NCBI GenBank assembly: GCA_028277725.1
Contig: JANQFX010000105.1
Coordinates: forward strand, 1 to 64,000
DNA: 64,000 nucleotides
Reading direction: 5' to 3'
DNA from: Thiohalocapsa sp.
GTDB taxonomy: Bacteria > Pseudomonadota > Gammaproteobacteria > Chromatiales > Chromatiaceae
Both the position numbers and the translations under genes were made by a program. The notes beneath the pieces were generated by a model that did not search any database, had not been told where the DNA came from, and saw only the letters and a list, made by a program, of their open reading frames with translations. Every line of letters starts with the position of its first letter. Within the stretch, counting starts at the first letter, position 1. Positions 58,856 through 61,235 of the stretch are shown one piece after another.

Positions 58856-59047
58856 ATGCTGAAGCTCAGCGACATCCTGGTGTCCCGAAAGGACATCGAC
58901 GACTTCTCGGGGCTACAGCTCGCCGTGAAAGAGGCGGCGCAGTCCGGTGAACGGTTCTTCCGTATGGACGTGAAGCCGCCCTACCCGGACACACCCGAGG
59001 ACTGGGAAGATCGACTGGAGGCAGCATTCAGCGGTCTGGTCCGCTAG
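58856..59047 (+). CDS. Small conserved-looking hypothetical protein (63 aa)
   Basis: MLKLSDILVSRKDIDDFSGLQLAVKEAAQSGERFFRMDVKPPYPDTPEDWEDRLEAAFSGLVR; first gene divergent from dsr. Confidence 0.6.
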   Translation: MLKLSDILVSRKDIDDFSGLQLAVKEAAQSGERFFRMDVKPPYPDTPEDWEDRLEAAFSGLVR

Positions 59048-59213
59048 ACACCCGCACCACGAACCAGGGCGCTGCCGGTCCCCCCGGCGCCCATCCGGCG
59101 GATGCGCGCGACGGACGGCCGCGGCTCGCATGGCCGGGCCCACGGGCCCCAAGGGATCGAGATATCGGGTCGTCGTTGGCGGCCAATCATCACCATGGCT
59201 CCGAGGCGAGACT

Positions 59214-59927
59214 ATGAAGGCCTACGACATCACCAACCGCTTGAGCGATACCGCTGCGGACTCGATCACCCGCCAGGGCGCCGAAGAAGCGGCGTTGGAA
59301 TCGCACCTGCTCGCTCTACAGGAGCAATACGACACACTGCGGCGCATCGACGCGGACGACGAACGCCTCGCGGACGCAAAGCTGCAAATGGCGCGGACGC
59401 TAGTCGGCCTCGGAAGGGGCGGCCAGGCCTGGTCCCTCGGCCGCGAGGCCTTCGACACCTTCATGGCCCAGGACGCCTTCGAGTCCGCCGCGGACTGCTG
59501 CGACGTCCTGTTCCGCACCGAGGAGTCGAGTTCGCTCGCGGCCCTCGGGCAGGGCATCTGGCTCGCTGTCACCTGCCCCATCGACGTGGAGCTGGCCGTC
59601 GAGTTGCTGACCCACGTGGTGGACGAAACGCCCGACGACTCGGACGGTGCCGCCGTCGCGGCGACGACCGCCCTGTTTCTCGCCGACCTGCGCGCCGAAG
59701 GCGTCCAGCGCGAGAACCTCACCTTCTTCGCATCCCAGACCCTGGCGGACGTCGCCCGCAGGCACAGCGACATCGACAGCCAGGAGGCCTTCGATCTGTG
59801 GCGAGACCGCCTGGAACTGCGCGAGCCGGACAAATTCCTCGTGCGCCTGCGCAACGTTATCGAGGTCCTGGTCCAGGACGACTGGTGGTTCGACCGCGAA
59901 GCGCTGCAGCAGCGCCTCCCCCACTGA
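59214..59927 (+). CDS. Hypothetical helical protein in the Cas6-like/DsrC-paralog cluster
   Basis: MKAYDITNRLSDTAADSITRQGAEEAALESHLLALQEQYDTLRRID...; start trimmed from 59130. Confidence 0.65.
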   Translation: MKAYDITNRLSDTAADSITRQGAEEAALESHLLALQEQYDTLRRIDADDERLADAKLQMARTLVGLGRGGQAWSLGREAFDTFMAQDAFESAADCCDVLFRTEESSSLAALGQGIWLAVTCPIDVELAVELLTHVVDETPDDSDGAAVAATTALFLADLRAEGVQRENLTFFASQTLADVARRHSDIDSQEAFDLWRDRLELREPDKFLVRLRNVIEVLVQDDWWFDREALQQRLPH

Positions 59928-60007
59928 CGCGCGCCGCCGCGCCGCCGCGAGGGACTCCATCCACCGGGCGACGCCGAGCCCTCCACAGCCCCGACCCATC
60001 GAGCACC

Positions 60008-60694
60008 ATGTTCTGGCAGGAAGACGAGCAAACCCCGCAGACCGGCCCCGACGACGACGTCGTCGATGTGCTATTCAGCCTGAAGTGCCGCGCACTCCCG
60101 GTCGATCACGCCTTCGCCCTAGGCCAGGCCCTGGTCCGGGAGGCGCCCTGGCTGGAGACGGCACCGGACGCCGGCGTCCACAGCATTCACGTCGCGGGCT
60201 CCCAGAACGGTTGGGAGCGCCCCACCCACGGCGCCGATCAGCAACTGCTGTTGTCGCGCCGCACCAAACTCTGTATTCGGGTGCCCCGCGAGCGCGTCGC
60301 GGACCTCAAGTCCGCCCTCGAGGAGACCAGCATCGACGTCGCCGGCGCCCAGCTGCAGATCGGCGAGGGCAGACCCAAGGCCCTGGTCAAGGAGCCGACA
60401 CTGTTCGCCCGCTATGTTGCGGGTCCGGCGGCCTTGGACGAAGACGCCTTCCTGCACTGGGCCGCCGAAGAGCTCCGCGCGATGGATATCCGTATCCGCA
60501 AGGCCCTGTGCGGCAAGGCAACCCAGCTGACGACGCCGACGGGCGCCCTCGACACCCGCAGCCTGTTGCTCGCGGACTTGAAACCCGAGGAGTCGCTGCG
60601 GCTCCAGCACCGCGGCCTTGGACCACACCGGGCCATGGGCTGCGGCATCTTCATTCCGCACAAGGGCATAGACGCGGTCCACAAGCCCAAGTAG
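60008..60694 (+). CDS. Cas6/Cmx6-like (type I-MYXAN family) protein, orphan
   Basis: MFWQEDEQTPQTGPDDDVVDVLFSLKCRALPVDHAFALGQALV...IHVAGSQNGWERP...LLLSRRTKLCIRVPRE... and C-terminal glycine-rich LGPHRAMGCGIFIPHKGI typical of Cas6 RAMP proteins. Confidence 0.75.
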   Translation: MFWQEDEQTPQTGPDDDVVDVLFSLKCRALPVDHAFALGQALVREAPWLETAPDAGVHSIHVAGSQNGWERPTHGADQQLLLSRRTKLCIRVPRERVADLKSALEETSIDVAGAQLQIGEGRPKALVKEPTLFARYVAGPAALDEDAFLHWAAEELRAMDIRIRKALCGKATQLTTPTGALDTRSLLLADLKPEESLRLQHRGLGPHRAMGCGIFIPHKGIDAVHKPK

Positions 60695-60896
60695 CGCATT
60701 TCCGGACAGGTGACGCGGAGACGGGATGCCACTAGTATTAGCGGGTCGTGATATGCCGCCAGCCACGTGGCCGCCCATCACCGCCGGCGCAGGGCGCAAT
60801 CCCGGCTCGCGCCCGACACGACCGATAACACCAACCCAAGAAGTGTGCGCCGCCCGCCCGCGGGCCGGGGCCGGCGCTGACGAGAGGAGCCCCCAC

Positions 60897-61235
60897 ATGG
60901 CACTAGAAGTCAACGGCAACACCATCGAAACCACCGACAGCGGCTACCTGGCCGACCCCACCGCCTGGGACGAAGACATTGCCAAGGCCATCGCCGATGG
61001 CGAGGGCATCGAGCTGACCGACAAGCACTGGGATGTGATCAAGTACCTGCGTGACGAGTTCTTCAACAACAACCAGAACCAGCCCATGGAGCGCCAACTG
61101 CTGAAGGACATGGGCAAGGTCTGGGGTGCGAAGCCGTCCAGTAAGGATGTCTACAAGCTCTTCCCCCTGGCCCCGACCAAGCAGGGCACCAAGATCGCCG
61201 GCCTGCCCGAGGTGCATCGCAAGGGCGGCTACTGA
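60897..61235 (+). CDS. TusE/DsrC family paralog lacking the conserved cysteines
   Basis: MALEVNGNTIETTDSGYLADPTAWDEDIAKAIADGEGIELTDKHWDVIKYLRDEFF...LFPLAPTKQGTKIAGLPEVHRKGGY; RBS gagaggag. Confidence 0.92.
   Translation: MALEVNGNTIETTDSGYLADPTAWDEDIAKAIADGEGIELTDKHWDVIKYLRDEFFNNNQNQPMERQLLKDMGKVWGAKPSSKDVYKLFPLAPTKQGTKIAGLPEVHRKGGY

What the first reader, a model, noticed from the sequence alone, without database searches (positions are those of the whole stretch)
58856..61235. Orphan Cas6/Cmx6-like protein in a four-gene cluster with a cysteine-less DsrC paralog, divergent from the dsr operon
A 63-aa protein, a 237-aa helical protein, a Cas6/Cmx6-like protein and a DsrC-family protein run in the same direction and end at a strong terminator. 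No CRISPR repeats or other cas genes are visible in the 64 kb. A Cas6-type RAMP nuclease coupled to sulfur-oxidation genes suggests exaptation for RNA processing or RNA-based regulation in sulfur metabolism rather than immunity. This is the most system-like uncharacterised locus in the window.
Basis: partly seen in the sequence, partly recalled or inferred. Interest (0 to 1): 0.85.

Follow-up and report, generated by a model that had tools for sequence, protein, structure and literature searches.

The report
CRISPR RNA-cutter fixed beside sulfur genes
A protein of the family that normally cuts CRISPR RNA (Cas6) sits, without any CRISPR, beside the sulfur-oxidation (dsr) genes of nearly every gammaproteobacterium that has them, paired with a cysteine-less DsrC protein, so it has very probably been recruited from immunity into sulfur metabolism, most likely to process or regulate RNA.

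Summary
60008-60694 encodes a true Cas6 fold (PF09559 216.6 bits; TIGR02807 above cut-off; AlphaFold pLDDT 89.5; best PDB match a Cas6). Across 387 genomes of the class its orthologue and dsrA occur together in 115, cas6 alone in 6, dsrA alone in 7, neither in 259; several exceptions are contig breaks. In the family, the 13 of 148 genomes without it all lack dsrA. It lies within 8 kb of dsrA in 84 of 115 and usually precedes a DsrC paralogue ending RKGGY without cysteine. Half of 40 carriers tested have no cas1. The window's genome has three CRISPR arrays elsewhere, one with its own, separately branching Cas6. The Cas6 histidine is kept in 135 of 137 orphans. Outside the class, 33 dsrA-bearing genomes lack it, so it is a lineage-specific addition. 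CRISPR independence and dedication to dsr are well supported; RNA cutting to regulate dsr is inference. No RNA substrate was found: a unique inverted repeat upstream of dsrA looks like a DNA operator, and hairpins inside the dsr operon also occur without Cas6. No paper in the searchable library reports this association.

The parts
60008..60694 (+). dsr-linked orphan Cas6 (228 aa); candidate catalytic His34; conserved NGW motif and Gly-rich C-terminal loop GLGxxRxxGCGxFxPHK
   Evidence: PF09559 216.6 bits, TIGR02807 118.7 bits; AF2 pLDDT 89.5; Foldseek 8fcj/8fcu Cas6; His34 in 135/137 orphans
60897..61235 (+). cysteine-less DsrC-family paralogue (called dsrC2 here), 112 aa, ends RKGGY
   Evidence: PF04358 115.5 bits; sequence; 82 of 96 best dsrC2 matches without Cys
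59214..59927 (+). 237-aa all-helical protein, TPR-like
   Evidence: AF2 pLDDT 92, 11 helices; Foldseek only weak TPR-type matches, none at E<=0.001; no Pfam family
58856..59047 (+). 63-aa protein with DVKPPYPDTPExWEDRLEAAF motif; family of unknown function
   Evidence: no Pfam/NCBIfam match; conserved beside dsrA in 80 of 84 loci and in Cas6-less genomes outside the class
56861..58117 (-). dsrA, first gene of the divergent dsr operon
   Evidence: TIGR02064 653.6 bits
55684..56757 (-). dsrB
   Evidence: ORF; conserved downstream of dsrA
54022..54354 (-). canonical dsrC, ends GLPKPTGCV with cysteine
58478..58493 (.). inverted repeat TATCCC-N4-GGGATA upstream of dsrA; probable DNA operator
   Evidence: only occurrence in the 4.35-Mb assembly; in 60 of 83 dsrA-upstream regions, 0 in reversed control
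60732..60752 (+). conserved promoter-like element CTAGTATTAGCGGGTCGTGAT before dsrC2; similar element before dsrA
61296..61318 (+). terminator-like hairpin with T6
   Evidence: read from sequence

Best explanation
A Cas6 (Cmx6-type) protein was recruited early in the Gammaproteobacteria together with a DsrC paralogue that has lost its cysteines, and became a fixed companion of the reverse dsr sulfur-oxidation operon. It works without CRISPR. Most likely mechanism: Cas6 binds, and with His34 probably cuts, a cellular RNA linked to dsr expression (a dsr transcript or a small RNA), while the DsrC2 protein, a DsrC look-alike unable to carry sulfur, acts as its partner or sensor and reports DsrC/DsrAB/DsrEFH status. 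The result would be post-transcriptional control of dsr gene dosage. Shown here: Cas6 fold, conserved His, dedication to dsr, independence from CRISPR, genomic pairing with DsrC2. Inferred: RNA as ligand, cleavage, Cas6-DsrC2 contact, dsr RNA as target.
For: Fold and family. Co-occurrence 115/6/7/259 in 387 genomes, Fisher p 3e-81 not corrected for kinship, 84 of 115 within 8 kb, median 2.75 kb. In the family 135 of 148 carry it and none of the 13 others has dsrA. Exceptions that are contig breaks: G279 ends inside the neighbouring gene; G220, G230, G262 and G367 break just upstream of dsrA. 84 of 101 examined loci have divergent dsrA in view, of which 80 have the 63-aa gene, 72 the 237-aa gene, 73 dsrC2. 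cas1 in only 20 of 40 carriers. Own genome has a separate Cmx6 with array and cas1; the two Cas6 groups are separated by a 100/100 branch. In genus g29 (Allochromatium) dsrC2 is not next to cas6 but kept elsewhere, 72-75% identical, in all 5 genomes, so the pairing is not mere hitch-hiking. His34 135/137, Arg85 and Arg91 137/137. Non-uniform changes along the dsr operon in A. vinosum RNA-seq, dsrA -4.7 to dsrC -1.25 log2 (PMC11267869), are compatible with segmental control.
Against: No RNA substrate identified. Cas6-cluster intergenic regions are not unusually structured (mean z 0.3 to -0.8). The structured dsrA-dsrB and dsrC-dsrM intergenic hairpins have no shared sequence, and the dsrC-dsrM ones also occur in Cas6-less dsr operons. 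dsrA-bearing genomes outside the class do without Cas6. The uneven dsr RNA-seq changes may come from internal promoters. Linkage of Cas6 and DsrC2 does not prove contact.
Confidence: 0.5

Rival explanations
1. Non-catalytic role: the protein keeps the Cas6 fold and binds an RNA (or holds a ribonucleoprotein together with DsrC2 and the TPR-like protein) but does not cut; it regulates translation or stability by binding only.
For: Many Cas6 proteins stay bound to their product (general knowledge of the family); orphan-specific features (N-terminal MxWxED, a GNGWxRP insertion absent from CRISPR-linked Cmx6) suggest new partners. The His position is Asn in the closest solved Cas6 (alignment).
Against: His34 is kept in 135 of 137 orphans over the class, more than a mere binder would need.
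Confidence: 0.25
2. It acts at DNA level: the Cas6-like protein or DsrC2 binds the unique inverted repeat TATCCC-N4-GGGATA between dsrA and the cluster and controls transcription of both.
For: The repeat occurs once in the genome and in 60 of 83 dsrA-upstream regions. Half-site variants are symmetric (5 left, 6 right, 1 both), as for a DNA operator. A. vinosum DsrC is reported to bind DNA upstream of dsr (statement in PMC5944118).
Against: Cas6 folds are RNA binders; nothing ties this repeat to Cas6 rather than to an unlinked transcription factor; 23 of 83 regions lack the repeat in this form.
Confidence: 0.12
3. It is an ordinary CRISPR Cas6 acting in trans on CRISPR arrays elsewhere in the genome.
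For: The window's genome does hold three CRISPR arrays, and the name given in databases is type I-MYXAN Cas6/Cmx6.
Against: Presence follows dsrA, not cas1: half of 40 carriers have no cas1, five of them genomes of 1.0-1.1 Mb; the C96 CRISPR locus has its own Cmx6; separate clade.
Confidence: 0.03
4. A passenger gene kept by position in a dsr cassette, with no role in sulfur metabolism.
For: Tight linkage to dsr alone could give the co-occurrence.
Against: It is kept where unlinked from dsrA (family f115, 42 and 518 kb away) and in reduced 1.0-1.1 Mb genomes, and dsrC2 is kept when moved away; active-type residues are conserved.
Confidence: 0.04

Closest known systems
CRISPR-linked Cas6/Cmx6 (TIGR02807, type I-MYXAN), e.g. 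the one at C96 of the same genome (L164)
   Same: Same family model, same fold, His in the PxDHxxxL motif, Gly-rich loop GLGxxRKxGCGxFxP
   Different: About 27-33% identity, separate 100/100 branch, no array, cas1 or effector genes nearby; orphan has N-terminal MxWxED and a GNGWxRP insertion; TIGR02807 score 119 against 190-203 bits
Cas6 of the type I-B CRISPR-associated transposon (PDB 8fcj)
   Same: Nearest solved structure, TM 0.76-0.83, 23% identity
   Different: Serves a Cascade-TniQ complex with a CRISPR array; Asn at the His34 position
DsrC / TusE sulfur-relay proteins (PF04358, TIGR03342)
   Same: DsrC2 is a clear member by sequence
   Different: Ends RKGGY and lacks the C-terminal cysteine that carries sulfur. 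From memory, cysteine-less DsrC relatives have been named RspA and thought regulatory; the source could not be read here
DsrR, regulator of dsr expression in sulfur oxidisers
   Same: A dsr-linked accessory protein reported to take part in regulation of sulfur oxidation (PMC11406059)
   Different: DsrR is a HesB-like protein, unrelated in fold to Cas6

Membership tests
Cas6 protein family (PF09559 / TIGR02807) | Profile match above curated cut-off | tested here: met
   PF09559 216.6 vs 26.7; TIGR02807 118.7 vs 98.85 bits
Cas6 protein family (PF09559 / TIGR02807) | Cas6 fold (RAMP type, Gly-rich loop) | tested here: met
   AF2 model pLDDT 89.5; Foldseek top matches all Cas6/Cse3, best E 7.7e-17; Gly203/205/211/213 conserved
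Cas6 protein family (PF09559 / TIGR02807) | Catalytic-type histidine near residue 30-45 | tested here: met
   His34 in 135/137; the catalytic role itself is by analogy
Cas6 protein family (PF09559 / TIGR02807) | Endoribonuclease activity on a repeat-like RNA | not testable with these tools
   No biochemical test; no substrate found
Type I-MYXAN CRISPR-Cas system | CRISPR array beside the gene | tested here: not met
   No direct repeat family in the 64 kb
Type I-MYXAN CRISPR-Cas system | Other cas genes in the operon | tested here: not met
   The four genes present are 63 aa, 237 aa, cas6 and dsrC2; cas1 lies on other contigs and is absent from 20 of 40 carriers
Type I-MYXAN CRISPR-Cas system | This gene is the genome's only cas6 | tested here: not met
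   Second Cmx6 at C96 with array and cas1
DsrC family, sulfur-carrying members | Conserved C-terminal cysteine(s) | tested here: not met
   60897-61235 has no cysteine and ends RKGGY; dsrC at 54022-54354 ends GLPKPTGCV
Core reverse-dsr pathway | Present in all dsr-bearing organisms | tested here: not met
   Present in nearly all class members with dsrA, absent from 33 of 33 dsrA-bearing genomes outside the class

The most novel reading that the evidence does not exclude
A CRISPR RNA-processing nuclease was domesticated once, at the base of the gammaproteobacterial sulfur oxidisers, into a two-protein module (Cas6 plus a sulfur-blind DsrC mimic) that senses sulfur-relay status and processes dsr RNA: a metabolic post-transcriptional regulator of CRISPR origin conserved across a whole bacterial class.
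Probability: 0.4. Interest if true: 0.95.

Novelty: new variant of a known kind. Interest (0 to 1): 0.85.

Why it matters
Cas proteins working outside immunity are few, and a Cas6 fixed as a companion of a central energy pathway in purple sulfur bacteria, symbiont-sized reduced genomes and other sulfur oxidisers would be a striking case. It would also give a concrete, testable player for how dsr expression is set, and it means that hundreds of database entries named 'type I-MYXAN CRISPR-associated protein Cas6/Cmx6' are misleading: they mark sulfur oxidation, not CRISPR.

Tried and rejected
1) The inverted repeat upstream of dsrA as Cas6 hairpin substrate: half-site changes occur about equally on both arms (6 would give C-A mismatches on the dsrA strand, 5 on the opposite strand), and it lies upstream of the promoter-like elements; read as a DNA operator. 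2) Hairpins between dsrA-dsrB and dsrC-dsrM as Cas6 sites: strong (mean z -1.7 and -2.6) but without shared sequence, and the dsrC-dsrM ones are also present in Cas6-less operons outside the class (z to -3.3). 3) Conserved RNA structure in the Cas6-cluster gaps: not found. 4) A divergent Cas6 replacing it in dsr loci outside the class: none by profile search; there the order is dsrA / dioxygenase / 63-aa gene, and in the one read in full a siroheme-synthase-like gene follows. 5) Rfam: no hit in the window. 6) Literature: searches on Cas6 with dsrC, dsr, dissimilatory sulfite reductase, orphan Cas6, Cmx6/MYXAN and exaptation gave no report of this link; only open-licence papers are in that library.

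Full report
What is there. The window's segment 58856-61235 holds four + strand genes divergent from dsrA: a 63-aa protein, a 237-aa protein, a Cas6-family protein (60008-60694) and a DsrC-family protein that I start at the ATG at 60897 (112 aa, no cysteine, ends RKGGY), followed by a terminator-like hairpin at 61296-61318. The Cas6 call is secure: PF09559 at 216.6 bits and NCBI's TIGR02807 (Cas6/Cmx6) above its cut-off; an AlphaFold model of mean pLDDT 89.5 whose best PDB matches are Cas6 proteins, first the type I-B transposon Cas6 8fcj/8fcu with TM 0.76-0.83, also the only clear sequence match. The 237-aa protein is an all-helical, TPR-like protein (pLDDT 92, only weak TPR-type matches). 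The 63-aa protein matches no family.

Where the window comes from. The nearest named relatives of the protein are Thiohalocapsa (L084-L090), Chromatiaceae. The assembly is about 84% complete.

The association with dsr. In 148 genomes of the family, 135 have an orthologue, nearly always one copy; the 13 without it have no dsrA at all. In 387 genomes spread over the class, 121 have the orthologue at E<=1e-20 and 122 have dsrA; both 115, cas6 only 6, dsrA only 7, neither 259 (Fisher p 3e-81, without correction for kinship). Several of the 13 exceptions are assembly breaks: G279's contig ends inside the gene that often lies between cas6 and dsrA, and G220, G230, G262 and G367 break right upstream of dsrA. 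In 84 of the 115 the two genes are within 8 kb, 29 are on different contigs, and only in two (family f115) are they far apart on one contig.

The neighbourhood. In 20 distant class members taken at +-9.5 kb, the dsr genes are adjacent in 18, besides the window. Of 101 loci examined, 84 have divergent dsrA in view, and of these 80 have the 63-aa gene, 72 the 237-aa gene and 73 the cysteine-less DsrC. In four further class members (L182-L185) the order is simply dsrA / cas6 - dsrC2; two of those four dsrC2 proteins keep one internal cysteine, but all end GKGGY. So cas6-dsrC2 is the core. In five genomes of genus g29 (Allochromatium by its named loci L108, L111, L124) dsrC2 is missing beside cas6 but is kept elsewhere at 72-75% identity. 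One of them, 3.7 Mb in three pieces, fits A. vinosum, and the position fits Alvin_1508; that identification is my inference. Alvin_1508 falls together with the dsr genes on pyrite (log2 -2.9; PMC11267869). The Thiodictyon syntrophicum paper lists a DsrC-like gene (THSYN_22565) just beyond its dsr cluster (PMC5944118), probably the same gene.

Not CRISPR. cas1 is absent from 20 of 40 well-assembled carriers, among them five genomes of 1.0-1.1 Mb. The window's own genome has cas1 at three places and CRISPR arrays of 21, 64 and 14 repeats there; the C96 locus has its own Cas6/Cmx6, which scores 202.6 bits on TIGR02807 and falls, with other Cmx6 copies of the CRISPR type, on the far side of a 100/100 branch from all 36 dsr-linked ones. 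For the other eight rows of that group I did not check each array.

Still Cas6-like in its working parts. Over 137 distinct orphan sequences, His34 in the PxDHxxxL motif (where Cas6 enzymes have their histidine) is kept in 135, Arg85 and Arg91 in all, and the Gly-rich loop almost throughout. CRISPR-type Cmx6 share His34 and the loop but lack the orphans' MxWxED start and GNGWxRP insertion. Note that the transposon Cas6 has Asn at the His34 position, so catalysis must be tested.

Limits of the distribution. Among dsrA-bearing genomes drawn from the phylum, 4 of 4 inside the class and 0 of 33 outside have it. Four outside genomes that carry the oxidative-type dsr gene set have the dioxygenase and 63-aa genes divergent from dsrA but no Cas6, even by a sensitive profile. 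So Cas6-DsrC2 was added, in the class, to an older upstream cluster.

Search for a substrate. An inverted repeat TATCCC-N4-GGGATA lies upstream of dsrA in 60 of 83 loci (0 in the reversed control) and at one place only in the whole assembly, 58478-58493. It is tempting as a Cas6 hairpin, but variants hit both arms alike and it lies upstream of a conserved promoter-like pair (GTGGAAT ... TAATATTAG), so I read it as a DNA operator. A similar TAATATTAG element precedes dsrC2 in part of the loci. The dsrA-dsrB and dsrC-dsrM gaps form strong hairpins (mean z -1.7, -2.6) without common sequence; the dsrC-dsrM hairpins are also present without Cas6. No substrate can be named.

Interpretation. Shown: a real Cas6 fold with a conserved active-site-type histidine, dedicated to dsr and independent of CRISPR, paired in the genome with a cysteine-less DsrC. 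Inferred: it binds and probably cuts RNA connected with dsr expression, with DsrC2 as partner or sensor. I give that mechanism 0.5; the dedication to dsr alone I would put above 0.95. Public names for these proteins are CRISPR names and I found no paper that notes the link, in an open-licence library that lacks much of the older dsr literature.

Noticed in passing
window 58478-58493: Inverted repeat TATCCC-N4-GGGATA found once in the whole genome and conserved upstream of dsrA over much of the class; a probable operator of an unidentified dsr regulator.
   Followed up: partly
window 53814-54021 and 56758-56860; L064-L163: Strong intergenic hairpins after dsrC and dsrA in most genomes, conserved as structure but not sequence; dsrC-dsrM hairpins also occur in Cas6-less dsr operons. 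Possibly mRNA-segment stabilisers.
   Followed up: partly
L065-L083, L229-L232: Genes resembling Fe(II)/2-oxoglutarate oxygenases cluster repeatedly beside the dsr/cas6 locus: a TauD-like one next to dsrA, and two PKHD-like ones downstream. The TauD-like gene is absent from the window's cluster.
   Followed up: no
L229-L232: dsrA-bearing genomes outside the class keep the dioxygenase and the 63-aa gene divergent from dsrA without Cas6, so the 63-aa protein has a dsr-linked role of its own.
   Followed up: partly
L164, L165, L166 (own genome C96, C63, C4): Three CRISPR arrays (21, 64 and 14 repeats) each near a cas1; one with its own Cas6/Cmx6.
   Followed up: partly
L172:8042-9700: Two Cmx6-type genes side by side in a Thiohalocapsa relative, both on the CRISPR-type branch of the tree.
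   Followed up: no
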